Assembly: GCA_913063265.1 (NCBI GenBank)
Contig: CAJXZG010000004.1
Coordinates: 1 to 64,000 of the forward strand
DNA: 64,000 bases
Origin: an uncultured Prolixibacteraceae bacterium
GTDB lineage: Bacteria > Bacteroidota > Bacteroidia > Bacteroidales > Prolixibacteraceae
Direction of reading: 5' to 3'
The notes beneath the pieces are model-generated. The model worked only from the letters and a program-made list of their open reading frames with translations, made no database searches and was not told where the DNA came from. Made by a program: the position numbers and the translations under genes. Shown here one piece after another: positions 18,016 through 49,549 of this stretch (position 1 is its first letter; every line of letters starts with the position of its first letter).

Positions 18016-19029
18016 ATGAAATCAAAACTGGAATACCTTTGGTTAGACGGTTCTCAACCAACACAACAATTGCGTGGTAAAACCCGCTTAGAAGAAAACT
18101 TTAGTGGAAAACTGGAAGATTGTCCAATGTGGTCTTTCGATGGTTCTTCAACTCAGCAGGCAACGGGTGATGCTTCTGACTGTTTAATGAAACCTGTATT
18201 TATTTGTAAGGATCCTGATCGTAAGAATGCATACATCGTTATGACAGAAGTTTTGAATGCTGACGGAACTCCACATTCTACCAATGGTCGTGCTACAATT
18301 GAAGAAGAAGACGATGATTTTTGGTTTGGATATGAGCAGGAGTATTTCCTTTATGACCCACAAACCAGACTACCTTTAGGTTTCCCTGCAGGAGGTTTTC
18401 CTGAGCCACAAGGACCTTACTATTGTGGTGTAGGCGGATCAAAAGTTTTTGGTCGTGCGATTGTTGAAGAACATCTTGATATGTGTATCGATGCTGGCTT
18501 AAGTATTGAAGGTATCAACGGTGAGGTAGCTGCCGGACAATGGGAATTCCAGATTTTTGAAAAAGGTGCTGCCAATGCAGGTGATCAAATTTGGGTAGCT
18601 CGTTACTTGTTGGAAAGAACAGCCGAAAAATACGGTTTAGACGTAGAATGGCATCCAAAACCACTTGGAAAAGAACTTGACTGGAATGGTTCAGGCATGC
18701 ACGCAAACTTCTCCAACGGTTTAATGAGAACTTGTGGCGACGAAAAAGTATTTACTGCAATTTGTGAGGAGTTTGCTAAATTTATTCCTGAGCACATTGA
18801 TGTTTATGGTGCGTTCAACGACCAACGTTTAACAGGATTACACGAAACTCAATCTATCCATGAATATAGTTATGGTGTTTCTGACCGTGGTGCTTCCATC
18901 CGTATTCCTGTGGGAACTGTAGAAGATGGCTGGAAAGGACGTCTGGAAGACCGTCGTCCTGCTTCAAACGCAGATCCATACAAAGTAGGTGCCCGTATTA
19001 TTAAAACTGTACACGGAGTTAAGTTATAA
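18016..19029 (+). CDS. Glutamine synthetase, type II (eukaryote-like GSII)
   Basis: A 337-residue cytoplasmic enzyme that makes glutamine from glutamate, ammonia and ATP. The length and the N-terminal KLEYLWLDGSQPTQQLRGKT with CPMWSFDGSSTQQATGDASDC are those of GSII, not of the 440-470-residue GSI. Metal and glutamate ligands are in EQEYFLYD, EVAAGQWEFQI and NGSGMHANFS, and the ATP-site Arg is in GRLEDRRPASNADPY. GSII is decameric in eukaryotes and rhizobia and is not regulated by GSI-type adenylylation; no adenylylation Tyr loop is seen. It is the first of three GS-family genes in 7.5 kb. Own promoter and a strong terminator. Confidence 0.95.
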   Translation: MKSKLEYLWLDGSQPTQQLRGKTRLEENFSGKLEDCPMWSFDGSSTQQATGDASDCLMKPVFICKDPDRKNAYIVMTEVLNADGTPHSTNGRATIEEEDDDFWFGYEQEYFLYDPQTRLPLGFPAGGFPEPQGPYYCGVGGSKVFGRAIVEEHLDMCIDAGLSIEGINGEVAAGQWEFQIFEKGAANAGDQIWVARYLLERTAEKYGLDVEWHPKPLGKELDWNGSGMHANFSNGLMRTCGDEKVFTAICEEFAKFIPEHIDVYGAFNDQRLTGLHETQSIHEYSYGVSDRGASIRIPVGTVEDGWKGRLEDRRPASNADPYKVGARIIKTVHGVKL

Positions 19030-19054
19030 TAAATAAGTTCATACCGGGAAAAAT

Positions 19055-19092
19055 AAAAAAGCTGTTCGATGCAAATTGAACAGCTTTTTTAA
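19055..19092 (+). terminator. Terminator of GSII
   Basis: AAAAAGCTGTTC and GAACAGCTTTTT form a 12-base stem with a 10-base loop, ending in a T run, about 25 bases after the stop. Confidence 0.85.
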
Positions 19093-19776
19093 TTATGTAG
19101 ATTCAATACCTTTTTAGTGACTCATCTTGAAATTACTGTGGAGTAAAGTATTTCTTACCTTAAATCCTTGCTTTTTCCTGCCGGAGGCCTTCATTTTTGG
19201 CTTAACCCAAAAACGAAGCAAAAAGCTCAAGGCTGCTTTTTATCTTCATCTTCCATCTTCACAAAACCTAACTTCGAAGGAGTGATTTCCTCGATTCCTC
19301 GGAACTTCTCCTTCTCTCTATGGTTTTGTTTCGATTCCAGACTTGATAAAAAAAGGCCAACTCACGAGGCAAAAGCCAAGTTTTTATTTACCTTATGAAC
19401 TCGCTCCAAATTACTACTATTTTTATTCTTTTTTTGATAAAAACTACTCTTCCAACTATAAGAAATACTATAGGCTTGAGTACGGGCACGTCAAAAATCC
19501 GTCAATCGAGCTAAGCCGAAACATTGAAAAAGCGCTAAGGTTATTTTTGACAAGATTTTTGGTTCCCTGCCCGAAGTCAGGAGGGCTTTTCTTCGAATGG
19601 AAAAGGAACTGCCCTTCCGGCATGAGGAAACTCCCGGTAGGGAAAACATTTCAAATAACCTGAATGCCTTCTATCTTAAAACATATTTAAGGTTATTTTT
19701 TAAAACAGTCCTAATACTTATTGAAAAACACTTCCTTGTTTTTATGCTCCACCTATTTTTCAACGTAAGCCCCCTT
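19093..19776. other. 684-base intergenic region, probably non-coding
   Basis: Overlapping plus-strand frames of 76-106 codons exist (19168-19398, 19343-19663 and 19597-19827), but they have no start context, no conserved residues and switch frames between low-complexity stretches. Short inverted pairs (CAAAACC/GGTTTTG around 19260-19330, AGGTTATTT/AAATAACCT around 19539-19663) suggest structured or decayed intergenic repeats. I see no gene. Confidence 0.5.
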
Positions 19777-20634
19777 TTAGTAATCAATAACTGCAGATTC
19801 ACAAACATATGTAGGTATAATTCCTGAACTTCCTATTTTTATCTTGGCCATTTCTGGTAAAGTGTTACCTGATAGAACAAGAACAGTATCAAGCCCGAAT
19901 TTATTACCACCAATAATATCTGTATAAAGGGTGTCGCCAACCATCAGAATTTCATTTCTTTTAATATTTGGAACATCTTCCAAAGCGCGTTCATAAGCAA
20001 GCAAAAACATCTGGGCATCGGGTTTTCCAAAACGAATAAATCGTTTTCCAAGAATTTGTTCAACCAAATCAGCCAAACCACCAATGGCCACCGAAATATC
20101 GTTTTTATTTACCGGATAGTTTATATCTGTATTTGCTACTATTACCTGCATATTTTTGTGTCTGAGCAGATTAATGGTTTTATCGATATCTTTGTTCCAG
20201 TCAAATCCTTCATCATCCAAAAAAGCAAAGGATTGAATATGTTCGAGATCTTCAAAATCAACATCACTGATTGAGACAGTATTTAATCCTGCGGTTTCTA
20301 TATAATGAGCAGATTTTTCAGTGCCCAGGTAAGCGACCGCATTTCCATTGGCAAGTTTGGTCTTAAAAAATTCCATGGCCAACATACCCGATGACAAAAT
20401 CTTATCAGTAGATATACATTCCAATCCTCTATCCTGATACCAGTTTGACAATTCATCCGGGCTTCGTGATGAATCATTTGTCAGAACATAATAAGGAATT
20501 CCTTTTTTTTCAAGATACTTAAAAGTTGCTTCTATCCCGGGAATTAATCCCTGATGATTTTTCAAAACCCCAAAAGCATCAAAAAAAACCGCTTTGTAGT
20601 TTTTTACTACACTTCGAAAACTTTTTGTTCTCAT
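19777..20634 (-). CDS. HAD-IIA family hydrolase-like protein with altered motif I
   Basis: A 285-residue cytoplasmic HAD protein with the subfamily IIA cap. Motif I reads FFDAFGVLKN (D19): the nucleophile Asp is there but the second Asp (acid/base) is replaced by Phe21, as in the DxWGV variant group of HAD-IIA proteins. Motif II is YVLTNDSSR, the Lys is in FGKPDAQMF, and motif IV is MVGDTLYTDI, so the rest of the active site is intact. Canonical HAD-IIA members remove phosphate from p-nitrophenyl phosphate, glycerol-3-phosphate or nucleotides; activity here is uncertain. Third gene of an operon with a kinase-like protein and a GSI-like ligase (5- and 14-base gaps). Confidence 0.82.
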   Translation of the reverse strand: MRTKSFRSVVKNYKAVFFDAFGVLKNHQGLIPGIEATFKYLEKKGIPYYVLTNDSSRSPDELSNWYQDRGLECISTDKILSSGMLAMEFFKTKLANGNAVAYLGTEKSAHYIETAGLNTVSISDVDFEDLEHIQSFAFLDDEGFDWNKDIDKTINLLRHKNMQVIVANTDINYPVNKNDISVAIGGLADLVEQILGKRFIRFGKPDAQMFLLAYERALEDVPNIKRNEILMVGDTLYTDIIGGNKFGLDTVLVLSGNTLPEMAKIKIGSSGIIPTYVCESAVIDY

Positions 20635-20639
20635 TCAGA

Positions 20640-21686
20640 TTATAGTTTTAAAGTCTTTAATATTTTCTCCACACGGTAATTGGCGTCAAGGGCCGGAAAA
20701 TAAGTGTCGTAAGCCTCTTTTATCAATTTATTGGAATATTGTTTCCTGAAAAAGTAAGGTCCATCTTTAATCACATAATTCAATATAAAAAAGCGATAGG
20801 CTTCCTTGATAAGCTGAACTTCGGGAACTGTTAACGGAAATATCTTGTGGTATTCTTTCAGGAACATCATAAAACGATCTTCCATTAATGTATTAACCAG
20901 GTAGCTAAAAACAGTTTTATCGCCTGCATCTGAAACCACACGGCTAAAAAAGTAAAAATCCATCACTCGTGACGACATTCTGAACCAGTCATAATCCCAA
21001 CGGGAGTAAAATTTCCCGTCACCTGTAATAGAAAAGTTTCCAATATTCCAATCTACCAAAACCGGTATAGTTTCAATTTCGGTTGTATAGTTTAATTTAT
21101 CAGCATTATTCAACAAACTGTCAGCATGTTTAAGAATCATATCCTTATGCGCTACACACATTTTAATTTCACCTTTAGAAACCGATCTTTTTAATTTTTG
21201 AATATCGGTAATCACGTTTTTTGAAGACGCAGGCAGCTGGTTTGTAACATTTGTGCATGCCTTGTGAAATCTTGCCAACTCACGTCCCAGTTTTTTAATA
21301 TGTTTTTCTTCAAGTCGGCGGGGTAATTTATTTTTTAACCTGATAGGATTGTAAAAAACAACCCATGCACTCCGATCTACTTCATGATAACGATAAATGT
21401 ACAATTCGTTTCTTTTTACCAGCGATTGCGCAAGAAAGGCATTGTAAGGGTGTTCCAGATTATTGGCAAGATTGTTTAAAATTATATGGTCTTCTCTAAA
21501 ATCTTCAAAGTTCCCGTACTCTGATAATTTGGCAAATACAGGTTCCCTCCCGTAAAATGAAACTTTATATACATGATTTGTTGAAACTTGCATACTTACA
21601 TCGTAAACACCCTTGATTTCGTGACGATCCCCATCAAATTCTTTCCAGGCAAGTTTTACTATGAGCTTATAATCAAGTTTTTGCAT
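20640..21686 (-). CDS. APH-fold (aminoglycoside/choline kinase-like) phosphotransferase
   Basis: A 348-residue cytoplasmic protein that I assign to the APH/choline kinase fold from residue pattern, not from a named family. The N-lobe has a putative ATP-contact Lys in VFAKLSEYG (near residue 54) and an alpha-C Glu in REDHIILNN. The catalytic loop appears as LVDWNIGNF (near 210): D-x4-N matches APH catalysis, but the leading His of HGD is replaced by Val-Asp. The metal Asp equivalent is in RWDYDWF. The substrate is unknown; most kinases of this fold phosphorylate hydroxyls of small molecules. It sits between the GSI-like ligase and the HAD protein, so the three should act together on one small molecule. 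Confidence 0.65.
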   Translation of the reverse strand: MQKLDYKLIVKLAWKEFDGDRHEIKGVYDVSMQVSTNHVYKVSFYGREPVFAKLSEYGNFEDFREDHIILNNLANNLEHPYNAFLAQSLVKRNELYIYRYHEVDRSAWVVFYNPIRLKNKLPRRLEEKHIKKLGRELARFHKACTNVTNQLPASSKNVITDIQKLKRSVSKGEIKMCVAHKDMILKHADSLLNNADKLNYTTEIETIPVLVDWNIGNFSITGDGKFYSRWDYDWFRMSSRVMDFYFFSRVVSDAGDKTVFSYLVNTLMEDRFMMFLKEYHKIFPLTVPEVQLIKEAYRFFILNYVIKDGPYFFRKQYSNKLIKEAYDTYFPALDANYRVEKILKTLKL

Positions 21687-21700
21687 TTTAAATGTTTGAG

Positions 21701-23059
21701 TTATATAATTTCAAAATAGCGTTTTAGTTCCCAATCCGTAACCTGTTTTTCAAACTGCATCCACTCCCACTCTCTTGTTCTTGTAAAATGTCCGATAAAA
21801 TCTTTACCAAAGAGTTCATTTGCAATTTTAGAATTTGCCATTTTCCTTGTAGCGTCTTTTAAATTTTTTGGCAAAACAACTGCTTTATCCATATTATATC
21901 CACTACCAAAGGTTTGAGGAGTTTTTAATTCTAATTTATTCTTTATTCCATATAATCCCGACGCCAGGGCAGCTGCCATTGCAAGATATGGATTAGTATC
22001 TGCTCCCGGAACACGAGATTCTATCCTTGCCGATTTGCTCTTCCCCTGAATAACTCTTACTGCTGTAGTTCGGTTATCTATCCCCCAGGTTGCATTTGCT
22101 GGTGCCCAATCTCCCTGACCAATACGTTTATAACTGTTTACGGTCGGTGCAAACATTGGCAGTATTTCCGGCAAACATAATAACTGCCCCGCAATATATT
22201 GTTCCAAAACCTTACTAATGTTGTTTTTATTGTCTTTATTAAAAAACAGGTTATTAGTTCCCTCTTTATTCCATAAACTTTGATGAATATGCCCTCCGCA
22301 ACCGGGCAGGGATGAATTCCATTTGGCCATAAAACTGGCAACCATATTATGCCGGTATGCTATTTCCTTTACCGATGATTTAAATAAAACCGCCTTGTCA
22401 GCCCCAGCCAAAATATCATCATATAAAACGGCTGCCTCAAAAACACCTGGCCCGGTTTCAGTATGCATTCCTTCCAACGGAATACCAAAAGCTTCCAGCC
22501 CATCAATTAAATGATGAACAAAATCACTGTTTAATGAAGTCCTTAGCACTGAATAGCCAAACATCCCGGGAGTAATTGGACTTAGTTTATCAAAACCGGC
22601 ACTATTTATTTCACCTGGTGTTCCCTGAAAGTTAAACCACTCAAACTCTTGTGCAAACATTGGCCTATATCCTAATTCATCACACTCTTTGGCAATCTTT
22701 TTTAATAAACTTCGTGAACAGGTTTCATTCGCATAAACTTCATGTTCATTAAAATCGGCAATAAAAAAAGGTGTATCATTTTCCCAGGGTATTTCTCTGA
22801 AAGTATTGATATCAAGAGCTGCACGTGCATCTGGATAACCGGTGTGCCATCCCGTAATTTCTGAATTGTTGTAACTAACATCCCCTGAATCCCAACCAAA
22901 TACAACATCACAAATTCCGATGTTTTCTTCAACAGATTCAAGAAACTTTTTTTTATGGATATATTTACCCCGTAATATCCCGTCTATATCGACAATTGCG
23001 ATTTTTACTTTTTGAGATTCAGAATCTTTTACTTTTTGTATAATATCCTTTTTGTCCAT
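21701..23059 (-). CDS. Glutamine synthetase family protein, GSI/PuuA-like gamma-glutamyl ligase
   Basis: A 452-residue cytoplasmic enzyme of the GSI fold. The active-site motifs are recognisable but not those of housekeeping GlnA: AQEFEWFNF, HTETGPGVFEAA, GCGGHIHQSLW, RIGQGDWAPANATWG, SARIESRVPGADTNPYLA and the C-terminal TREWEWMQFEKQVTDWEL. These fit PuuA/IpuC/GlnT-type ligases, which couple the gamma carboxyl of glutamate to amines other than ammonia. No NLYDLP adenylylation loop is present. It heads the operon ligase-kinase-HAD and is divergent from glnN, with a 28-base palindrome in the shared promoter region. The actual amine is unknown, and it may not be a true glutamine synthetase. Confidence 0.85.
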   Translation of the reverse strand: MDKKDIIQKVKDSESQKVKIAIVDIDGILRGKYIHKKKFLESVEENIGICDVVFGWDSGDVSYNNSEITGWHTGYPDARAALDINTFREIPWENDTPFFIADFNEHEVYANETCSRSLLKKIAKECDELGYRPMFAQEFEWFNFQGTPGEINSAGFDKLSPITPGMFGYSVLRTSLNSDFVHHLIDGLEAFGIPLEGMHTETGPGVFEAAVLYDDILAGADKAVLFKSSVKEIAYRHNMVASFMAKWNSSLPGCGGHIHQSLWNKEGTNNLFFNKDNKNNISKVLEQYIAGQLLCLPEILPMFAPTVNSYKRIGQGDWAPANATWGIDNRTTAVRVIQGKSKSARIESRVPGADTNPYLAMAAALASGLYGIKNKLELKTPQTFGSGYNMDKAVVLPKNLKDATRKMANSKIANELFGKDFIGHFTRTREWEWMQFEKQVTDWELKRYFEII

Positions 23060-23106
23060 TGTATTATTAAAATTTGAAGAAAAGTAAGTGATGTTTCAAT
23101 AATTAT

Positions 23107-23143
23107 CAAATGTATTTTTTAACAAAATCAAAAAATACATTTG
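23107..23143. promoter_or_regulatory. Perfect 14-base inverted repeat in the divergent GS promoter region
   Basis: CAAATGTATTTTTT (23107-23120) and AAAAAATACATTTG (23130-23143) are perfect reverse complements around a nine-base spacer. Each arm contains a TACATTTG -7 box reading outward, towards the GSI-like gene (48 bases) and towards glnN (189 bases). It could be an operator, a pair of overlapping divergent promoters, or both. Confidence 0.6.
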
Positions 23144-23289
23144 AATTTTAAATGTAAAAACCTGACGATAATTCAAAAAAAACATCTTTTCAAAAAAATA
23201 CCCCAATCCAGAACGGGCAATCAAAAATAATTTATCTGATTTATCATAAACACACCCTGCAAAATAACACTAAAACCATTTTAATATTG

Positions 23290-23297
23290 TATTTTTG
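23290..23297 (+). promoter_or_regulatory. -7 promoter box of glnN
   Basis: TATTTTTG lies 35 bases before the glnN ATG and matches TANNTTTG; no clear -33 element is seen. Confidence 0.45.
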
Positions 23298-23331
23298 ATC
23301 ATCACAAAAATAACAGATAAAACATAAACAA

Positions 23332-25521
23332 ATGGCACAATTCAGACTAAATGCACTTTCAGAAGTGTTAAACCGAAAACCAAAGGATATTATTCGTGAA
23401 GAAAACCTTGTTTCTGACTATTTTGGAATACAGGTTTTTAATCAGACAAAAATGAAAAGGCATCTTTCCAAAGAAGCATATAAAGCAGTTATGGATGCGA
23501 TTGAGAACGGAACCACCATTAACCGAAAGATGGCAGATCAGGTTGCTCAGGGAATGAAAACATGGGCAATAGAAAATGGTGCCACACATTATACACACTG
23601 GTTTCATCCATTAACCGACGGCACTGCTGAAAAACACGATGCTTTTATTGTACATGGAGCCGATGGTTCTGTGATAGAATCTTTTTCCGGAAAGTTATTG
23701 GCTCAGCAGGAACCTGATGCTTCATCCTTTCCAAGTGGAGGAATTCGACAAACCTTCGAAGCACGCGGTTATACCGCATGGGACCCGACATCGCCGGCAT
23801 TTATAAGCGAAACAACTTTAACCATTCCTACTATTTTTATTTCGTACACGGGTGAAGCACTGGATTATAAAACTCCGTTATTGCGTGCCATTTCTGCAGT
23901 TGATAAAGCTGCAACTGAAGTATGTCAGTATTTTGATAAAAATGTTTCATCTGTTCAGACTAATTTAGGATGGGAACAGGAATATTTTCTAATTGACGAA
24001 TCACTTTATATGGCCCGTCCAGATTTAATGCTAACAGGAAGAACTTTAATGGGTCATGCATCATCCAAAGATCAACAACTGGATGACCACTATTTTTCTT
24101 CAATACCTACCCGCGCAAACCGTTTTATGCAGGATGTGGAAAACGAGGCTTATAAGCTCGGAATTCCGCTAAAAACTAGACATAACGAGGTAGCTCCAAA
24201 CCAATTTGAATTTGCTCCGATTTATGAAGAGGCCAATCTTTCCAACGACCACAATCAACTGGCCATGGACATTATGCAAAAAATAGCACGTAAACATAAT
24301 TTCCGGATTCTGTTCCATGAGAAACCGTTTAAAGGTATCAATGGTTCGGGGAAACACAATAACTGGTCGCTTGAAACCGATACAGGAGTAAATCTTTATT
24401 CGCCGGGTAAAAATCCTAAATCCAACCTGCAGTTTCTGACTTTTGTAATCAATACGTTAAAAGCAGTACACGATGGACAGGATTTGTTAAGAGCAAGTAT
24501 ATTAACTGAGTCGAATACACATCGATTGGGAGCCAATGAAGCACCTCCTTCTATTTTATCTGTTTTTCTTGGTTCTGAGGTTTCAAATATGCTTGATCTA
24601 ATGGAAGAAGCTGTTGTTGACCGCAAAATGACTCCGGATGAAAAAACCGCACTTAAATTAAATATAGGCAGAATTCCTGAAATTATTCTGGACAATACAG
24701 ATCGTAACAGAACATCGCCATTTGCTTTTACAGGAAACAGATTTGAGTTTCGTGCAGTTGGTTCATCGGCTAATTGTGCTTCGGCAATAATTGTTTTAAA
24801 TGCATTGGTTGCTAATCAATTAAACGAATTTAAAGTTGCAGTTGATAAGTTAATTGCAAAAGATGTAAAAAAAGATGAAGCTATATTTCAGGTATTAAAA
24901 GATTTGATTATCAAATCGAAACCAATTCGCTTTAATGGGGATGGTTACAGTGAAGATTGGATAATTGAAGCCTCAAAAAGAGGCCTGACAAATGTAAGAA
25001 CTGTACCTGAATCTTTATCTGCTTATGTACGACCTGAATCAAGAAACCTGTTCTCGAAATTGGGAATATTTAACGAATCAGAGTTAAAAGGCCGGGTTGA
25101 AGTAGAGTACGAAAAATTTATTATGAAATTGCAAATCGAGTCGCGTGTACTGGCTGATATAGCGATTAATCATATCGTTCCGACAGCAGTAAGTTACCAA
25201 ACCATGCTTCTGGAGAATGTGAAAAATCTTAAAGAAGTTTTCACACCTGAGGAATTTAAAATCCTGGCCGGAGCAAGAACTGAATTAATCCGGGAAATTG
25301 GTGGTCATATTTCTGCCATAAAATCATTACGAAAAGAAATGATTGAAGCAAGAAAAACAGCCAATATCATTGATGATGTTATAAAAAAAGCTAAAAACTA
25401 CGATAAACTTGTTAAACCATTCCTTGATGAAATCAGGGAACATATCGATAAACTTGAATTGATAGTTGACAATGAAAAATGGCCATTGCCAAAATATCGT
25501 GAATTGTTGTTTGTGAAATAG
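23332..25521 (+). CDS. glnN: Glutamine synthetase, type III
   Basis: A 729-residue GSIII, the large dodecameric glutamine synthetase typical of Bacteroidota and cyanobacteria (about 725-730 residues). The GSIII-specific N-terminal region (residues 1-190, with IREENLVSDYFGIQVFN and THYTHWFHPLTDGTAEKHD) precedes the catalytic core: GWEQEYFLIDE, TRHNEVAPNQFEFAPIYEEANLSNDHNQL, NGSGKHNNWSLE and RNRTSPFAFTGNRFEFRAVGS. It is cytoplasmic and makes glutamine from ammonia, the likely main assimilatory enzyme. Monocistronic by spacing, divergent from the GSI-like operon. Confidence 0.97.
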   Translation: MAQFRLNALSEVLNRKPKDIIREENLVSDYFGIQVFNQTKMKRHLSKEAYKAVMDAIENGTTINRKMADQVAQGMKTWAIENGATHYTHWFHPLTDGTAEKHDAFIVHGADGSVIESFSGKLLAQQEPDASSFPSGGIRQTFEARGYTAWDPTSPAFISETTLTIPTIFISYTGEALDYKTPLLRAISAVDKAATEVCQYFDKNVSSVQTNLGWEQEYFLIDESLYMARPDLMLTGRTLMGHASSKDQQLDDHYFSSIPTRANRFMQDVENEAYKLGIPLKTRHNEVAPNQFEFAPIYEEANLSNDHNQLAMDIMQKIARKHNFRILFHEKPFKGINGSGKHNNWSLETDTGVNLYSPGKNPKSNLQFLTFVINTLKAVHDGQDLLRASILTESNTHRLGANEAPPSILSVFLGSEVSNMLDLMEEAVVDRKMTPDEKTALKLNIGRIPEIILDNTDRNRTSPFAFTGNRFEFRAVGSSANCASAIIVLNALVANQLNEFKVAVDKLIAKDVKKDEAIFQVLKDLIIKSKPIRFNGDGYSEDWIIEASKRGLTNVRTVPESLSAYVRPESRNLFSKLGIFNESELKGRVEVEYEKFIMKLQIESRVLADIAINHIVPTAVSYQTMLLENVKNLKEVFTPEEFKILAGARTELIREIGGHISAIKSLRKEMIEARKTANIIDDVIKKAKNYDKLVKPFLDEIREHIDKLELIVDNEKWPLPKYRELLFVK

Positions 25522-31458: not shown

Positions 31459-32076
31459 ATGGAAAATAAACTTCAGGAATTAACTCAAAAACTTTACAAG
31501 GTAGGAGTTGAAAAAGCAAAAAATGAAGCCGATACTATTCTTTCAGAAGCAAAGAAAAAAGCAGATGAAATTGTGCAAAATGCCAATAACGAAGCAAAAA
31601 AAATAATTAATCAGGCTAATTCAGACAGTGCGGATTTAAAACAGAAAACAGAAAAGGAGCTAATTCTTTCTTCAAAACAGCTAAAATCTACAATAAAAAA
31701 TCAGATTACTAACCTGATTACAAAAGATTTAATGTCTTCTGATATAAAAGAAAGCCTTAATGAAATCCGGTTTGTTCAATCACTCATCGAACTTGTGATA
31801 GAAAAATGGGATATCAATGATGCCCAAAGTACCGATTTACAAATTATACTTCCCAATGCAAAAAAGTCAGATTTTGACAGGTACATAAAATCAAAAACAA
31901 ACAAACTAATGGCTAAAGGACTGGATGTACATTTTGACGAAGAATTTAAATCGGGATTTAAAATTACACCAAAAGACAAAAGTTACATTATAAATTTCGC
32001 CCAGGAAGATTTCGAGAATTTTTTCAAAACCTACTTAAGAAAGCAAACTGCAAAATTACTTTACAAGGAAGAATAA
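31459..32076 (+). CDS. V-type ATP synthase subunit E
   Basis: A 205-residue peripheral-stalk subunit of the V/A-type ATPase. The first 110 residues are a strongly charged coiled coil (EKAKNEADTILSEAKKKADEIV, with heptad Ala), the rest a globular domain, as in VatE/AtpE. First gene of the operon E-DUF2764-A-B-D-I-K. The next gene begins at its stop codon (TAATG). Residue pattern more than strong identity supports it, but the context is decisive. Confidence 0.88.
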   Translation: MENKLQELTQKLYKVGVEKAKNEADTILSEAKKKADEIVQNANNEAKKIINQANSDSADLKQKTEKELILSSKQLKSTIKNQITNLITKDLMSSDIKESLNEIRFVQSLIELVIEKWDINDAQSTDLQIILPNAKKSDFDRYIKSKTNKLMAKGLDVHFDEEFKSGFKITPKDKSYIINFAQEDFENFFKTYLRKQTAKLLYKEE

Positions 32077-32906
32077 TGATAAAAAGAAACTATTACTACT
32101 TAATTGCAGGGTTTCCGGATATTCTTATTGATCAGAAAAAACTTCCCTTTCCCTTAATTAAGTTAAAACAAGAGCTCGAATACCACCTCCACCCTTCTGA
32201 CTTCAGATTGGTAGAGTATTTGTTTTTACCTTATGACAACAGTAATTTTTTGAACATTCTTCTTAAAAATAATGTAGATTTTAATCCACTTGGTAATTAC
32301 ACTGAAGATTTTTTTACATATGAAATAAAAGAGCCGGAACACCTTCCTGAATACATGAAAAAGTTTCTGGCAGCATATCGTGAGGAAAATCCACTTTTCC
32401 CCAATTTAAGTTTTGAAAATCAGCTTACATGGTTGTATTTCGACTTTATGCTCGAACAAAAAAATAAATTCCTGAATGAAATATTTACAGCTTTTCGCAA
32501 CATCAAAAACATATTTGCAATTTACAATTCTCGGGAATTTGGATTTAATATTGAGAATCAAATGATTGGCAATTACGAGTTAACCGAAGCTGCAAAAAGA
32601 ACAAGTGCTAAAGATTTTGGACTGGCCGGTGAAATAAGTCATATTGAAGAAATAATTGGGATTCATGAAAACAAAGATATTCTTGAACAAGAGATTTCAA
32701 TCGACTTGCTGAAATGGAAATATATGGATGAGCTGAACACGTTCAATTATTTCACTATAGAAAAAATATTAGCTTATGTTATTGAATTTATGATAGTTGA
32801 TCGCTGGATGAACCTTAAAACTGATGAAAGCAGAAAGGTTTTCAAACAAGTACTTTACGATTTAGAAACCAGTGTAGAATTTTCAAAAGATTTTAATATC
32901 AGATGA
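32076..32906 (+). CDS. DUF2764 family protein, V-ATPase operon
   Basis: A 276-residue soluble protein of the DUF2764 family, always found between E and A in Bacteroidota, chlamydial and spirochaetal V-ATPase operons. It starts with YYYLIAGFPDILIDQ and contains acidic, helical segments, with LTWLYFDFMLEQ and NEIFTAFRNIKNIF characteristic. The operon has no C/d subunit, so this may occupy the central-stalk-to-rotor position; that is inference. It ends with an ATGA overlap to VatA. Confidence 0.88.
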   Translation: MIKRNYYYLIAGFPDILIDQKKLPFPLIKLKQELEYHLHPSDFRLVEYLFLPYDNSNFLNILLKNNVDFNPLGNYTEDFFTYEIKEPEHLPEYMKKFLAAYREENPLFPNLSFENQLTWLYFDFMLEQKNKFLNEIFTAFRNIKNIFAIYNSREFGFNIENQMIGNYELTEAAKRTSAKDFGLAGEISHIEEIIGIHENKDILEQEISIDLLKWKYMDELNTFNYFTIEKILAYVIEFMIVDRWMNLKTDESRKVFKQVLYDLETSVEFSKDFNIR

Positions 32907-34669
32907 AGAAAACAGTAACCAATACTAAAGGAAAAATTGCCGGAATAATATCCAACTTAGTAATTGTTGAAGTAGATGGTCCGGTTTCGCAAAACGAGAT
33001 TTGTTATATCAGCCTTACAGGTATTAATTTAATGGCTGAGGTTATTAAAGTTTTTGAGAAAAAAGTTTTTGTACAGGTGTTTGAAAGTACGCGCGGACTA
33101 AAGGTTGGTCAGGAAGTGGAATTTACCGGTGCCATGCTTGAAGTTACCCTTGGCCCCGGAATTCTGTCACGAAATTACGATGGGCTGCAACATGATCTTG
33201 ATAAAATGGATGGTGTTTTTCTTAAACGTGGAGACTATACACAGGCTTTGAATTTTGAAAAACTTTGGGACTACAAACCTATTGCAAAGGCAGGTGATAC
33301 TGTTTATGCGGGTGATTGGATTGGCGAGGTAACAGAAAATGTAATGCCTCATAAAATTATGGTTCCCTTTAAATTAAGCGATAAGTACACAGTTAAAAGT
33401 GTGGTTAAGGCAGGTAAATACGATGTAAATAAAATGGTCGCAATCCTGACAGATAAAAAAAATAAAGATATTGAGGTTAGTATGATTCAAACCTGGCCTG
33501 TTAAAGTGCCGATTAAAAATTATAAAAACAAACCACGCCCTTTTAAATTACTGGAAACCGGAGTTAGGACTATTGACACTTTAAATCCGATTGTTGAAGG
33601 TGGCACAGGCTTTATTCCCGGTCCTTTTGGTAGTGGTAAAACAGTACTTCAGCATGCCATTTCTAAACAAGCTGAAGCTGACATCGTAATTGTTGCGGCA
33701 TGCGGCGAACGTGCCAATGAAGTGGTTGAAATATTTACAGAATTTCCTGAAATTGATGATCCACGCACAGGAAGAAAACTAATGGAGCGCACAACAATTA
33801 TAGCCAATACCTCAAATATGCCTGTTGCGGCAAGAGAAGCATCGGTTTACACTGCTATGACCATTGCAGAATATTATCGTTCTATGGGTTTAAAGGTTCT
33901 ACTCCTGGCCGACTCTACTTCGCGCTGGGCACAGGCTTTACGTGAAATGTCAAACCGAATGGAGGAACTTCCGGGGCAAGATGCTTTCCCCATGGATTTA
34001 CCGGCTATAATTTCAAATTTTTATTCACGCGCAGGATTTACGTATCTCAATAATGGCGAAACAGGTTCGATAACTTTTATCGGAACAGTATCACCTGCAG
34101 GAGGAAACCTCAAAGAGCCTGTTACCGAATCGACCAAAAAAGCAGCCAGGTGTTTTTATGCACTTTCACAACAGCGTGCCGACAGCAAAAGATACCCCGC
34201 CATTGATCCAATTGACAGCTATTCAAAATACCTTGAATATCCGGAGTTGCAGGATTATCTAAGGGAAAATATCAGCAAAGATTGGATCGATAAGGTTTTA
34301 ACAGCAAAAAACTACTTGTTAAGAGGGAAAGAGGCATCTGAGCAAATTAATATTTTAGGCGATGACGGAGTTCCCATTGATTACCACCTAAGATTCTGGC
34401 GTGGCGAAGTTATTGACTTTGTAATATTGCAACAAGATGCATTTGATGATATTGATAAACAAACCACTCTGGAACGCCAAAAATTTTTACTAGAAAAAGT
34501 ATTAGACATTTGTGAAACTGAGTTTCAGTTTGAATCATTTGATGAAGTCAATCCCTATTTCAAAAGAGTAATCAACAACCTTAAACAAATGAATTACTCT
34601 GAGTTCAAATCTGAAAAGTTCAACAACTATCTTACCGAATTAACAAGTATTATCGACGAAAGGAAATAA
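32903..34669 (+). CDS. V-type ATP synthase subunit A (catalytic)
   Basis: A 588-residue catalytic subunit. Walker A is GPFGSGKT near residue 240, with the V/A-type non-homologous region before it. The catalytic Glu is in CGERANEV, and DSTSRWAQALREMSNRMEE follows. Subunit A3B3 hydrolyses ATP to drive rotation in the soluble head. Length and motifs are full and intact. Its start overlaps the DUF2764 stop by four bases. Confidence 0.97.
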   Translation: MKKTVTNTKGKIAGIISNLVIVEVDGPVSQNEICYISLTGINLMAEVIKVFEKKVFVQVFESTRGLKVGQEVEFTGAMLEVTLGPGILSRNYDGLQHDLDKMDGVFLKRGDYTQALNFEKLWDYKPIAKAGDTVYAGDWIGEVTENVMPHKIMVPFKLSDKYTVKSVVKAGKYDVNKMVAILTDKKNKDIEVSMIQTWPVKVPIKNYKNKPRPFKLLETGVRTIDTLNPIVEGGTGFIPGPFGSGKTVLQHAISKQAEADIVIVAACGERANEVVEIFTEFPEIDDPRTGRKLMERTTIIANTSNMPVAAREASVYTAMTIAEYYRSMGLKVLLLADSTSRWAQALREMSNRMEELPGQDAFPMDLPAIISNFYSRAGFTYLNNGETGSITFIGTVSPAGGNLKEPVTESTKKAARCFYALSQQRADSKRYPAIDPIDSYSKYLEYPELQDYLRENISKDWIDKVLTAKNYLLRGKEASEQINILGDDGVPIDYHLRFWRGEVIDFVILQQDAFDDIDKQTTLERQKFLLEKVLDICETEFQFESFDEVNPYFKRVINNLKQMNYSEFKSEKFNNYLTELTSIIDERK

Positions 34670-34671
34670 AT

Positions 34672-35994
34672 ATGGAAACGAAAGCATTTCAAAAAATATA
34701 TACAAAGATTATTCAAATTACCAAGGCTACATGTTCTTTGAGAGCGACCGGAATCGGTTATGAAGAATTAGCCATTATCAACGGACGTCTTGCACAGGTT
34801 GTTAAAATAATTGGTGATTTGGTTACTTTGCAGGTATTTGGCGGTACTGAAGGAATACCAACAAATGCTGAAGTTGTATTTATGGGAAAACCTCCGGTGC
34901 TTTCTGTCAGCGACGATTTAGCCGGAAGATTTTTTAATGCCTTTGGAAATCCGATAGATGGTGGTCCTTCTGTTGATGGTGAGGAACGGGAAATTGGCGG
35001 ACCTTCCGTAAATCCTGTTCGCAGAAAGCAACCTTCTGAATTAATTGCAACCGGTATTGCCGGTATCGACCTGAATAACACCATTGTAACTGGACAGAAA
35101 ATTCCTTTTTTTGCAGATCCCGATCAGCCATTTAATCAGGTGATGGCAATGGTTGCCATGCGGGCGAAAGCAGACAAAATCATATTGGGAGGGATGGGCT
35201 TAACCAACGATGACTACCTGTTTTATAAAAGTATTTTTGAAAATGCCGGAGCGTTGGATCGAATTATTTCTTTTGTAAACACTACCGAAGATCCGCCTGT
35301 CGAACGTTTATTGGTGCCTGATATGGCATTGACTGCAGCTGAATATTTTGCTGTTGACAAACAACAAAGTGTTCTGGTTCTTTTAACCGATATGACACTT
35401 TACGCTGATGCACTAAGTATTGTATCCAATCGCATGGATCAGATTCCTTCAAAAGACAGCATGCCGGGATCTCTTTATTCTGATTTGGCAAAAATCTATG
35501 AAAAAGCTGTACAATTCCCAGATGGAGGTTCTATTACAATTATTGCGGTTACAACTTTATCAGGGGGTGATATTACCCATGCTATTCCGGATAACACCGG
35601 ATATATTACTGAGGGCCAGTTATTTCTTCGCAAAGACTCTGACATTGGAAAAGTAGTTGTTGATCCATTCCGGAGCCTGTCGCGCTTAAAACAACTAGTC
35701 ATTGGTAAAAAAACAAGAAAAGACCATCCCCAGGTGATGAACACCGCAATTCGCCTTTTTGCAGATGCAGCACAAGCAAAAACAAAACTTGAAAATGGTT
35801 TTGACCTCACCGATTATGATGAAAGAACACTCAAATTTGGAAAAGAATATTCTGACAAACTTTTGGCAATCGATGTAAACGTGGATATAGATAACATGCT
35901 TAAAACTGCATGGAGATTATTTGCTAAACATTTTACACGGGCAGAAGTGGCAATACGAAGTGAATTTATGGAGCAATACTGGAAAGGGGAATAA
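34672..35994 (+). CDS. V-type ATP synthase subunit B
   Basis: A 440-residue non-catalytic head subunit paired with A. It lacks a Walker A (the corresponding loop is IPFFADPDQPFN), as usual in B, and contains the typical IDGGPSVDGEEREIGG, TTEDPPVERLLVPDMALTAAEYFA and RMDQIPSKDSMPGSLYSDLAKIYEKA. Two bases separate it from A. Confidence 0.97.
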   Translation: METKAFQKIYTKIIQITKATCSLRATGIGYEELAIINGRLAQVVKIIGDLVTLQVFGGTEGIPTNAEVVFMGKPPVLSVSDDLAGRFFNAFGNPIDGGPSVDGEEREIGGPSVNPVRRKQPSELIATGIAGIDLNNTIVTGQKIPFFADPDQPFNQVMAMVAMRAKADKIILGGMGLTNDDYLFYKSIFENAGALDRIISFVNTTEDPPVERLLVPDMALTAAEYFAVDKQQSVLVLLTDMTLYADALSIVSNRMDQIPSKDSMPGSLYSDLAKIYEKAVQFPDGGSITIIAVTTLSGGDITHAIPDNTGYITEGQLFLRKDSDIGKVVVDPFRSLSRLKQLVIGKKTRKDHPQVMNTAIRLFADAAQAKTKLENGFDLTDYDERTLKFGKEYSDKLLAIDVNVDIDNMLKTAWRLFAKHFTRAEVAIRSEFMEQYWKGE

Positions 35995-36028
35995 CAAAAA
36001 ATAAACAAACTGGTCAGAAACAAGTTAA

Positions 36029-36621
36029 ATGAAATTTCAATATAACAAAACAGCACTTCAGGATTTGGATAAACAATTAAAAATCCGGGTTAGGGCACTG
36101 CCTACAATAAAAAATAAAGAGGCAGCTCTACGATTAGAAGTGAAAAGGGCAAAAAATGAAGCGCTTGAATTTGAAAAAAGACTCAATCAACAAATTACAG
36201 AATATGAAAAATTTGTAAGGATTTGGGGTGAATTTGACAACTCTCTTTTATCGATCAAAGAACTCGAACTTGATACTAAAAAAATAGCAGGAGTAAAAGT
36301 ACCGGTCTTAAAAAATATTGATTTTGAAATTAAAGAATTTAGCTTGTTTAATAATCCACAATGGTTTTTAAAAGGAATTAAGATTTTAAAAGAGCTGACA
36401 ACAATTACCATTGAACGTGATATTTTTTTTAGAAAGAGTGAATTACTCTTTTTAGCTCGAAAAAAAACAACACAAAAAGTGAATCTGTATGAGAAGGTAC
36501 AGATACCTGGTTATGAAGATGCAATACTAAAAATAAAACGTTTTCTGGAGGATGAAGAAAACTTATCAAAATCGTCGCAGAAAATTGTTAAAAACCGTCA
36601 GCAACAGCAAGAGGAAGTAGT

Positions 36622-36625
<4 letters not shown>
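36029..36625 (+). CDS. V-type ATP synthase subunit D
   Basis: A 198-residue central-shaft subunit, a long coiled coil at both ends that turns inside A3B3. Begins KFQYNKTALQDLDKQLKIRVRALPTIKNKEAALRL, family-typical for VatD, and ends with helical DEENLSKSSQKIVKNRQQ. A four-base ATGA overlap links it to the next gene. Confidence 0.93.
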
Positions 36626-39038
<2,413 letters not shown>

Positions 39039-42129: not shown

Positions 42130-43392
42130 TTACCAGTCAACTTCTGCTCTTTTCACGGGCATAGTCATACATCGGGCACCTCCGCCACCACGCGCTAACT
42201 CTGAGCCTGCTATTAAAACCACGCATTTTTTGAATTGGTCGACTGAAACATTTTTATCTATCACATCTTTTGCTTTTATCACCTCAAAACCATTTTTATT
42301 TAACTCTTCGATGGTGTGACTGTTTCTTTCATATCCAATTACTTTTCCAGGGCCAAAAGCAAAAAAGTTGGCTCCGCTATGCCATTGCTCACGTTCCTGA
42401 ATCCATGAATCTGTTCTTCCGCCGCAGAATATTGGTTTTAAATCGATTCCCACTTTTTGTAAAGCTTTCATAATGTTGGGTTTCTCTTCTATTTTAACCA
42501 CTTTTCGGTTTTCAATTTGAATATGAATTGTTCTCAAACGGTTCATTTTTGTAATCACAGGTTCGTAAACCATACAGGAGTCCGAATTCAAAAAAGTATA
42601 AACCATGTCGAGATGAATAAACGATTCGGGTGTTGAAGGTAATTCCTGAACAATAATATGGTGTGGTTCTGTTTTTAACTTTTTAATATTTTCGATTATA
42701 AAATCGATTCCCTGAGTACTTGTTCGAACACCCGTTCCAATTACAAAAACATCTTCACGAGCCACCTGGAAATCTCCTCCTTCAATCGTTGATTTCGGAT
42801 TCATGGAAATACCGGTTTCAGGTTTTAAGGGATTGATGGTTTTGGTTTCAAAAAGTTCGTGGTATTTAAAAATCGACTCCATTATAACCGATTCTCTTTC
42901 TCGAACAGGATTTGCCATTTTTCCAATCAGCATATTATCATTCATGCCCATAGCCGAATCGCGTGTAAAAAACAAGTTGTGTAAAGGCCTTAATAAAAAC
43001 CTTTCATTACTTAGATAGCTTGTCAGGTTGTTTTTTTCAAGCACCAAACCTTCAATGAGCAGAGTCGCTAATTTTTCAGCTGTGTAATCCGCCAGAAGTA
43101 AAGGATCACAAATATTTCCTTCCTTACTACAAATTTCTTTAAGCAAATTTATTTTTACTTCTTCTTTTTTAAGAATATCTGCCAGTAATTTTTTTACATG
43201 ATATACTGAAGTTACCGTATTTAACACTCCTTCAAGCTGAGCAAATTCCCGCGATGCAACTGATAAATTTAAAATATCACTGTAAAGCGCTCGTTCTGCA
43301 TTTTCAGGGGTCATATTTTCAACTTCAGAACCAGGCTGATGCACGATTACGGCTTCCAAATTTCCAAACTCAGAATTGATACTGGTCTTCAT
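42130..43392 (-). CDS. arcA: Arginine deiminase
   Basis: A 420-residue cytoplasmic enzyme that converts arginine to citrulline and ammonia. Diagnostic segments are SEFGNLEAVIVHQPGSEVENM, NLFFTRDSAMG, IEGGDFQ, ESFIHLDMVYTFL, the Arg region and the catalytic Cys in ARGGGGARCMTMP near residue 405. In the classical ADI pathway, arcB and arcC would accompany it; neither is here, so citrulline must be used elsewhere or the gene works alone. Length matches ArcA. Confidence 0.95.
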   Translation of the reverse strand: MKTSINSEFGNLEAVIVHQPGSEVENMTPENAERALYSDILNLSVASREFAQLEGVLNTVTSVYHVKKLLADILKKEEVKINLLKEICSKEGNICDPLLLADYTAEKLATLLIEGLVLEKNNLTSYLSNERFLLRPLHNLFFTRDSAMGMNDNMLIGKMANPVRERESVIMESIFKYHELFETKTINPLKPETGISMNPKSTIEGGDFQVAREDVFVIGTGVRTSTQGIDFIIENIKKLKTEPHHIIVQELPSTPESFIHLDMVYTFLNSDSCMVYEPVITKMNRLRTIHIQIENRKVVKIEEKPNIMKALQKVGIDLKPIFCGGRTDSWIQEREQWHSGANFFAFGPGKVIGYERNSHTIEELNKNGFEVIKAKDVIDKNVSVDQFKKCVVLIAGSELARGGGGARCMTMPVKRAEVDW

Positions 43393-49447: not shown

Positions 49448-49549
49448 ACCTATATATTTTGTTTTTAGAATTTTTTGCAATGATAGAAAACCTTGCGGTT
49501 TGAAAAAATGATTTTACACAACACTTTCAACTAAAAATCGGAACTTTCT

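What the first reader, a model, noticed from the sequence alone, without database searches (positions are those of the whole stretch)
19777..23059. Ligase-kinase-HAD operon: candidate undescribed small-molecule pathway
Three tightly spaced minus-strand genes (14- and 5-base gaps): a PuuA-like ligase, an APH-fold phosphotransferase with D-x4-N loop, and a HAD-IIA protein. One logical reading: the ligase adds glutamate to an amine, the kinase adds and the HAD removes phosphate on the same or a later intermediate. No such pathway is known to me.
Basis: inference. Interest (0 to 1): 0.75.

Follow-up and report, generated by a model that had tools for sequence, protein, structure and literature searches.

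The report
Kinase pair tied to glutamine synthetase
Many Bacteroidota keep a never-annotated kinase and an odd HAD-family enzyme together, usually beside a ligase that probably joins glutamate to a small amine, and in genomes that also carry a type II glutamine synthetase, which points to an unrecognised side-branch of nitrogen metabolism.

Summary
In detail: three tightly packed minus-strand genes (GS-like ligase 21701-23059, kinase-like 20640-21686, HAD 19777-20634; gaps 14 and 5 nt). The set is conserved. In the same 395 Bacteroidota genomes, kinase and HAD occur in exactly the same 42; the ligase in 35 of these 42 and 6 of the other 353; type II glutamine synthetase (GlnII, 747 nt from the HAD gene in the window) in 42 of 42 against 29 of 353. 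Two Desulfobulbales genomes have kinase, HAD and GlnII; their kinase and GlnII both group with Prolixibacteraceae, so the set was transferred. The kinase has the APH/choline-kinase fold but no Pfam or NCBIfam family. The ligase resembles gamma-glutamyl-amine synthetases (Trp in place of the Glu327 flap); 7 of 8 relatives examined away from the kinase sit with an ethanolamine permease, Fe-alcohol dehydrogenase and aldehyde dehydrogenase. The HAD lacks the general acid/base Asp (Phe/Tyr in 41 of 41), so an ordinary phosphatase role is doubtful. Best reading: a GlnII-coupled module that makes and phosphorylates a gamma-glutamyl amide, most likely gamma-glutamylethanolamide. The module is well supported; the substrate is inference (confidence 0.3).

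The parts
21701..23059 (-). GS-like gamma-glutamyl-amine ligase (452 aa), first gene of the operon
   Evidence: Pfam Gln-synt_C; Trp318 instead of the Glu327 flap, catalytic residues kept, 35 of 35 rows; shares 89 invariant residues with ligases of ethanolamine-type operons
20640..21686 (-). Unannotated APH/choline-kinase-fold kinase (348 aa)
   Evidence: no Pfam/NCBIfam/PDB sequence match; AF2 models and Foldseek; K53, D212, N217, D231 invariant in 48 of 48 rows
19777..20634 (-). HAD-IIA (NagD clade) protein with D-x-F instead of D-x-D in motif I (D19-A20-F21)
   Evidence: TIGR01460; D19 in 41 of 41 and residue 21 Phe/Tyr in 41 of 41 rows; close to 2hx1
18016..19029 (+). GlnII, type II glutamine synthetase, convergent neighbour; partner of the kinase-HAD pair by co-occurrence
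   Evidence: Gln-synt_N and Gln-synt_C above gathering scores; best NCBIfam hit NF041605 GlnII, 385.3 bits, below its cut-off 500; homologue in 42 of 42 kinase-positive genomes
23332..25521 (+). GSIII, type III glutamine synthetase, divergent neighbour; linked in Prolixibacteraceae and a Bacteroidales MAG
   Evidence: Pfam GSIII_N; inside 25 of 80 named loci

Best explanation
The operon is the gamma-glutamyl-amide arm of a GlnII-linked nitrogen-assimilation module. The GS-like protein spends ATP to join the gamma-carboxyl of glutamate to a small amine, most likely ethanolamine or a close amino alcohol. The APH/choline-kinase-fold protein then phosphorylates the gamma-glutamyl amide, most simply at its free hydroxyl, taking the place that Fe-alcohol dehydrogenase has in the related catabolic operons. 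The HAD protein acts on the phosphorylated product through its Asp19 nucleophile; because its general acid/base Asp is replaced by Phe/Tyr, it should act on a labile or substrate-assisted phosphate rather than on ordinary phosphomonoesters. GlnII supplies or recovers nitrogen for the same pool. Shown here: conservation, pairing, co-occurrence with GlnII, fold, motif states, shared ancestry of the ligase with ethanolamine-operon ligases. Inferred: the amine, the kinase substrate, the HAD reaction, the role of GlnII.
For: Kinase and HAD in the identical 42 of 395 genomes. GS-like (E<=1e-100) in 35 of 42 against 6 of 353. In those 6 genomes, plus G126 where it lies on another contig than the kinase, the ligase sits with a permease, Fe-ADH and aldehyde DH, and in 6 of the 7 ORF maps a PuuD/C26-like hydrolase. 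Family searches covered only part of these neighbours: ethanolamine permease TIGR00908 above its cut-off in the 2 tested (L141, L135), Fe-ADH in 2, aldehyde DH in 1 and hydrolase in 2 by NCBIfam, all below equivalog cut-offs, and 2 more hydrolases by Pfam C26; the rest was named by reading the sequence starts. Cassette and ethanolamine-operon ligases share 89 invariant residues; only 3 columns are group-specific (I258V, I337L, P351V). Six of the 7 kinase-positive genomes without the cassette ligase carry a 32-36% relative with the same WAP flap; in 5 of these it lies beside aldehyde-DH- and SDR-like frames (GATase-like in 3), read by eye, as in the GlnA4 cluster of S. coelicolor (PMC6529630 passages). 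In 233 genomes 30 of 31 kinase-positive and 14 of 202 kinase-negative have a GS-like relative at E<=1e-45. In Sphingobacteriaceae a gamma-glutamyl cyclotransferase (GGACT) gene lies beside the ligase (8 of 40 loci, in 6 between GlnII and the ligase; 2 of the 8 tested by Pfam). Foldseek relatives include aminopropanol, ethanolamine, choline and homoserine kinases. GlnII is in 42 of 42 and in 13 of 13 named genomes, and came with the kinase into Desulfobulbales.
Against: The kinase keeps the same 69 invariant residues in genomes without the cassette ligase (one search includes such rows), so its substrate need not be that ligase's product; G203 has kinase, HAD and GlnII but no GS-like relative at E<=1e-10. 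No oxidoreductase or transporter is part of the window cassette. The three group-specific ligase columns lie next to active-site residues (H257/H259, R335, R349), and P351V is not conservative, so the amine may differ. Antibiotic and sugar kinases (AmiN, APHs, NahK) rank as high as amino-alcohol kinases in Foldseek, so the fold does not fix the substrate. A kinase followed by a phosphatase on one metabolite would be futile unless something happens between. The strict tie to GlnII is not explained by an ethanolamine branch as such. In Emticicia (56% ligase) and G190 (32% relative) the ligase has other neighbours.
Confidence: 0.3

Rival explanations
1. The kinase-HAD pair acts on glutamine or another product or by-product of GlnII itself, for instance forming and cleaving an N-phosphoryl gamma-glutamyl amide (P-N bond); the GS-like ligase is a frequent but optional partner.
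For: GlnII is the one partner never missing: 42 of 42 and 13 of 13 genomes examined (an overlap between the unnamed and named sets is not excluded). GlnII-kinase-HAD without the ligase in four f25 genomes (L131-L134) and kinase-HAD-GlnII in Desulfopila. LHPP, a NagD-clade HAD with Ser in place of the second Asp, acts on phospholysine, phosphohistidine, pyrophosphate and imidophosphate (PMC11277029 passages). An amide-N glutamine kinase is known in Campylobacter (recalled; only listings seen).
Against: No APH-fold kinase is known to me to phosphorylate an amide nitrogen; the Campylobacter enzyme is of another fold (recalled). The motif I resemblance to LHPP is loose (Phe/Tyr, not Ser). Three of the four f25 genomes carry a ligase relative elsewhere.
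Confidence: 0.2
2. The kinase and the HAD protein reversibly modify GlnII (or the ligase), as GlnE does for GlnA by adenylylation.
For: Co-occurrence and repeated linkage with GlnII; APH-fold protein kinases exist (YihE/1zyl; its protein-kinase role is recalled).
Against: GlnII shows no Ser/Thr/Tyr/His column specific to kinase-positive genomes (103 kinase-positive rows, window included and with near-copies, against 20 of the 29 kinase-negative genomes); NagD-clade HADs are said to act on small molecules.
Confidence: 0.12
3. The kinase phosphorylates the free amine (ethanolamine or similar) and competes with the ligase; the HAD recovers the amine or acts on a related phosphate ester, i.e. salvage of phospholipid head groups.
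For: Fold relatives include ethanolamine, choline and aminopropanol kinases; ligase relatives lie with ethanolamine permeases.
Against: Does not explain the GlnII link; the HAD lacks the acid/base Asp expected for ester phosphatases; six invariant Arg (R229, R236, R240, R249, R271, R298) fit an anionic substrate better (inference; their places in the site were not examined).
Confidence: 0.15
4. The genes are only co-regulated (nitrogen starvation) and do not share a pathway; linkage reflects a nitrogen-assimilation island.
For: GlnII also lies with GSIII (L146, L149, L151) and, in L146, an AmtB-like gene, at places where the kinase is not near (AmtB named by eye).
Against: Identical phyletic pattern of kinase and HAD, and transfer of kinase-HAD together with GlnII to Desulfobulbales, go beyond shared regulation.
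Confidence: 0.13
5. A resistance or detoxification cassette against a glutamine synthetase inhibitor, with an APH-type kinase as inactivator and GlnII as spare target.
For: Best Foldseek hits include antibiotic kinases AmiN, APH(9), corramycin kinase.
Against: Strong conservation (46-89% identity to the window protein, 69 invariant positions); no match in 72,556 plasmid records and none by the pattern scan of viral contigs.
Confidence: 0.04

Closest known systems
GlnA4 gamma-glutamylethanolamide pathway (Streptomyces coelicolor; similar in Chromohalobacter salexigens)
   Same: GS-like ligase with the ammonia-type Glu327 replaced by a non-polar residue; relatives of the window ligase lie with permease, alcohol DH, aldehyde DH and mostly an amidohydrolase
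   Different: The window cassette has no dehydrogenases, hydrolase or permease; it has a kinase and a HAD protein instead
PauA/PuuA gamma-glutamylpolyamine synthetases (PauA7, PDB 4hpp)
   Same: GS fold, Trp at the flap position (PauA7 W296 = W318 here)
   Different: Far below the PuuA model cut-off (217.6 against 650); no Puu genes beside it in the window
APH / choline-ethanolamine kinase / homoserine kinase II fold kinases
   Same: Two-lobe fold, beta-strand Lys, D-x4-N loop, D-x-D after it
   Different: No HMM match for the window protein; own motifs DWNIGNF and SRWDYDWFR; Phe/Leu instead of His two places before the catalytic Asp
HAD-IIA (NagD clade), incl. 2hx1 (Cytophaga, organism recalled), PLP phosphatase, LHPP
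   Same: Fold family, nucleophile Asp, later motifs; LHPP also lacks the second Asp
   Different: Phe/Tyr at the +2 position, as in no characterised member that I know (recalled)
glnE-glnA clusters of actinobacteria (recalled)
   Same: A modifying enzyme encoded beside several GS genes
   Different: Unrelated enzymes; no evidence here of GS modification

Membership tests
gamma-Glutamyl-amine ligases (GlnA4/PauA type) | GS catalytic domain with metal, glutamate and ATP residues kept | tested here: met
   Gln-synt_C 321 bits; E138, E140, E201, E208, H257, H259, R312, R330, R335, E347, R349 invariant in 35 rows, aligned to solved GSs; assignment of roles by motif, from recall
gamma-Glutamyl-amine ligases (GlnA4/PauA type) | Glu327 flap residue replaced by a non-polar residue | tested here: met
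   W318 in 35 of 35 rows; PauA7 W296, GlnA4 F331 (PMC6529630)
gamma-Glutamyl-amine ligases (GlnA4/PauA type) | Ammonium-binding Asp50 lost | tested here: inconclusive
   N-terminal alignment ambiguous around D57/D60
Ethanolamine gamma-glutamylation pathway | Permease, alcohol DH, aldehyde DH and amidohydrolase in the same cluster | tested here: not met
   Absent beside the window ligase; present for 7 relatives, hydrolase seen in 6 of the 7 maps
APH (PF01636) kinases | Match above the Pfam gathering score | tested here: not met
   No match for the window protein; weak hits in 4 of 22 homologues, best E 0.0081
APH (PF01636) kinases | Kinase fold with catalytic D-x4-N and DFD-like Asp | tested here: met
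   Foldseek; D212, N217, D231 in 48 of 48 rows
HAD-IIA hydrolases (TIGR01460) | Score above model cut-off | tested here: met
   119.8 against 100.15
HAD phosphatases | Motif I D-x-D with general acid/base Asp | tested here: not met
   D19-x-F/Y in 41 of 41 rows
HAD phosphatases | Phosphatase activity | not testable with these tools
   needs assay
GlnII-modifying pair (works like GlnE) | Modified residue on GlnII conserved with the kinase | tested here: not met
   No kinase-specific S/T/Y/H column; a negative of limited power

The most novel reading that the evidence does not exclude
The kinase-HAD pair founds a new enzyme couple dedicated to gamma-glutamyl amides: an APH-fold kinase that phosphorylates glutamine or gamma-glutamylethanolamide and a NagD-clade HAD without acid/base Asp that cleaves the resulting labile phosphate, forming an unknown phosphorylated nitrogen store or signal between glutamine synthetase II and amine assimilation.
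Probability: 0.17. Interest if true: 0.82.

Novelty: new variant of a known kind. Interest (0 to 1): 0.58.

Why it matters
If true, Bacteroidota (and at least one Desulfobulbales lineage) have a side-branch of ammonia and amine assimilation that no annotation names: a kinase family without a Pfam entry, locked to a HAD protein of unusual chemistry and to type II glutamine synthetase. The strict co-occurrence makes the substrate question directly testable with a few purified proteins and deletion strains.

Tried and rejected
Searched and found nothing: kinase in PDB by sequence, single and profile (four hits of E 1.1-2.4, taken as chance), plasmids, viral contigs (five pattern matches, none a relative), PADLOC, Rfam on the window. 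Papers on a GS-kinase-HAD set: none in the listings (nothing listed); only titles and starts of abstracts were seen there. '2HX1': no functional study in the listing. on HAD motifs, LHPP and glutamine kinase: listings only, apart from the passages of PMC11277029. PMC6529630: passages only. Rejected: PuuA membership (score far below cut-off); defence system; mobile resistance cassette. GlnII as phosphorylation target was tested by comparing columns and found no support.

Weaknesses of counts: co-occurrence tests (Fisher) ignore phylogeny; the support that does not rest on counts is the presence in several families and the transfer to Desulfobulbales. The thresholds were mine (kinase E<=0.001, HAD 1e-50, ligase 1e-100, GlnII 1e-80). 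The 233 genomes were taken to be G000-G232 of the 395, because no handle above G230 is listed although known positives with higher numbers exist, and E-values agree; this is inference. Of the 14 kinase-negative hits there, 4 are the ethanolamine-operon ligases and 10 are weaker relatives (31-35%) whose type I did not examine. ORF maps are mechanical (longest non-overlapping ORFs; the hydrolase of L140 is not seen in its map, where an opposite-strand ORF was kept). The 40 loci were chosen by me: 20 of the 80 named loci and the 20 regions; two of them (L071, L112) have identical sequences. For kinase-negative GlnII I fetched 20 of 29; the GlnII tree has 49 of the 123 rows held; no tree was made for the HAD. 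All trees are drawn with midpoint roots.
Full report
What is there. The window comes from a Prolixibacteraceae-like genome (5.49 Mb); the nearest named kinase homologue is 89% identical, in Draconibacterium aestuarii. Three minus-strand genes are packed with 14- and 5-nt gaps. They lie inside a glutamine synthetase island: GlnII (18016-19029, +) converges on them, 747 nt from the HAD gene's end, and GSIII (23332-25521, +) diverges from the ligase. No known RNA family is present in the window at gathering scores.

The ligase. It has the GS catalytic domain but is below the cut-offs of the four equivalogs it matches. Catalytic residues are kept, while the flap Glu327 of ammonia-using GS is Trp318 in 35 of 35 rows. 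The paper on S. coelicolor GlnA4 (PMC6529630, passages read) reports Trp at this place in PauA7 and Phe in GlnA4 and ties the change to amine use. The strongest clue is context. Six genomes have this ligase without the kinase; there, and in G126 where the ligase is on another contig than the kinase, it lies with a permease, an iron alcohol dehydrogenase and an aldehyde dehydrogenase, and in 6 of the 7 maps a C26/PuuD-like hydrolase. The two permeases tested (L141, L135) score 438.9 and 438.5 against a cut-off of 381.75 for ethanolamine permease; the other enzymes tested there match their superfamilies below equivalog cut-offs, and two further hydrolases match Pfam C26. This resembles the route proposed for S. 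coelicolor: ethanolamine, gamma-glutamylethanolamide, gamma-glutamylacetaldehyde, gamma-glutamylglycine, then glutamate and glycine. In the tree the seven ethanolamine-operon ligases form one side of a branch (93/90) among the cassette ligases. 89 residues are invariant in both groups and three columns are group-specific (I258V, I337L, P351V), all next to active-site residues. I therefore expect the same class of amine, though not certainly the same amine.

The kinase. It has no Pfam, NCBIfam or PDB sequence match. Two AlphaFold2 models (pLDDT 82.5 with 22 sequences, 89.0 with 48) match APH-like kinases: AmiN, homoserine kinase II, YtaA, N-acetylhexosamine kinase, YihE, aminopropanol kinase, ethanolamine and choline kinases. 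TM-scores of 0.41-0.69 in the rows shown support the fold, not a substrate. K53, D212, N217 and D231 are invariant, as are six arginines.

The HAD protein. It scores as HAD-IIA and is close to 2hx1, a structure without a functional study in the listing. Motif I is D-x-F or D-x-Y in 41 of 41 rows: the nucleophile is kept, the general acid/base is gone. The NagD-clade enzyme LHPP, which also lacks it (Ser), is described as acting on P-N and pyrophosphate bonds (PMC11277029 passages). An ordinary phosphomonoesterase is therefore not the default reading.

Conservation. In 395 Bacteroidota genomes the kinase is in 42, the HAD (E<=1e-50) in the same 42, the ligase (E<=1e-100) in 41, of which 35 shared, and a GlnII homologue (E<=1e-80) in 71, including all 42 (sets compared). 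Of the 42, the HAD is within 350 nt and on the same strand in 41, the ligase within 1 kb in 34, GlnII within 10 kb in 15. Of 80 named loci, 78 have the HAD and 76 the ligase next to the kinase; the missing HADs (L053, L069) and two missing ligases (L058, L109) are at contig ends, L057 and L105 are real exceptions; 65 have GlnII and 25 GSIII inside the locus. Of the 15 named loci without GlnII, the genomes of 10 were searched and all 10 have it elsewhere, as do L057, L059 and L060 at the locus itself; the other 5 were not searched and are short or cut loci. The order GlnII-ligase-kinase-HAD on one strand (a GGACT gene on the other strand may lie between) recurs in Sphingobacteriaceae (e.g. L065, L080) and in family f25 of another class (L124, L125, L130); four f25 genomes have GlnII-kinase-HAD without the ligase (L131-L134).

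Transfer. Two named Desulfobulbales genomes have the kinase (L056, L057). In the order of one of them (77 genomes drawn, that genome included) the kinase and this GlnII occur only in that one; the other genome, not in the draw, has both as well. The two Desulfobulbales sequences pair with each other (100/100 for GlnII, 97/97 for the kinase) inside a group with Prolixibacteraceae (100/99 in each tree; for GlnII a Bacteroidales MAG is in it too). GlnII and the kinase thus came from a Bacteroidota source, in Desulfopila side by side (kinase-HAD-GlnII). Desulfopila also has a 46-47% ligase relative beside aldehyde DH, Fe-ADH and a class I amidotransferase.

Results against a simple trio pathway. 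Seven kinase-positive genomes lack the cassette ligase. Six of them carry a 32-36% relative with the WAP flap, in five beside aldehyde-DH- and SDR-like frames as read by eye, in G190 beside other genes; G203 has none at E<=1e-10. In Emticicia the ligase (56%) is beside a GntP permease and a molybdopterin oxidoreductase. GlnII has no kinase-linked phosphorylatable site. The catabolic genes are not near the window cassette.

Reading. The pair occurs with GlnII in every genome examined and nearly always with a gamma-glutamyl-amine-type ligase of some kind (30 of 31 against 14 of 202 at E<=1e-45). What GlnII and these ligases have in common is the product class: gamma-glutamyl amides. I commit to a pair of enzymes working on such an amide, most likely gamma-glutamylethanolamide phosphorylated at its hydroxyl, with the HAD acting on the phosphorylated product. 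The cyclotransferase gene (GGACT) beside the ligase in Sphingobacteriaceae (8 of 40 loci; 2 tested) fits this product class. The amine, the phosphorylation site and the HAD reaction are not shown. The alternatives (glutamine itself, the free amine, GlnII protein, mere co-regulation) remain open and are listed with tests.

Novelty. I saw no paper on this gene set in the listings (open-access full text only); passages of two papers were read. The ligase is a variant of a known kind; the kinase family has no entry in the libraries used and the HAD motif state is unlike the characterised members I know. Hence 'new variant of a known kind', with a bolder reading kept in the novel case.

Noticed in passing
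window 18016-25521: Three glutamine synthetase paralogues of different classes (GlnII, GSI-like, GSIII) within 7.5 kb; the same island recurs in many Prolixibacteraceae loci.
   Followed up: yes
L144:7905-12595: Desulfopila sp. IMCC35006 has a GS-like ligase (46%), aldehyde DH, Fe-ADH and a class I amidotransferase in a row: an ethanolamine-type gamma-glutamylation operon in another phylum.
   Followed up: partly
L135, L136, L137, L138, L139, L140, L141: Bacteroidota operon ethanolamine permease / GS-like / Fe-ADH / C26 hydrolase / aldehyde DH, which looks like a version of the GlnA4 pathway with Fe-ADH in place of SDR.
   Followed up: partly
L031:11992-13125 (cluster also in L035, L043, L048, L054): A class I/II aminotransferase gene lies directly downstream of GlnII, same strand, in several Prolixibacteraceae; no such ORF lies there in the window.
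   Followed up: no
G191:C1:3314382-3315221: HAD homologue with one in-frame TAA reported in the match.
   Followed up: no
L017/L122 (G126), L128, L129: Kinases of G126 and of two f8 genomes do not fall with those of their own families (G126 apart from G292; G064/G158 on a long branch), which may mean further horizontal transfer; support is weak (39/36).
   Followed up: partly
window 42130-43392 and 46568-49480: An arginine-deiminase-family protein and glycine dehydrogenase GcvP lie 19-27 kb away; glycine is the expected product of the ethanolamine route.
   Followed up: no
window 31459-39038: V/A-type ATPase operon on the plus strand.
   Followed up: no
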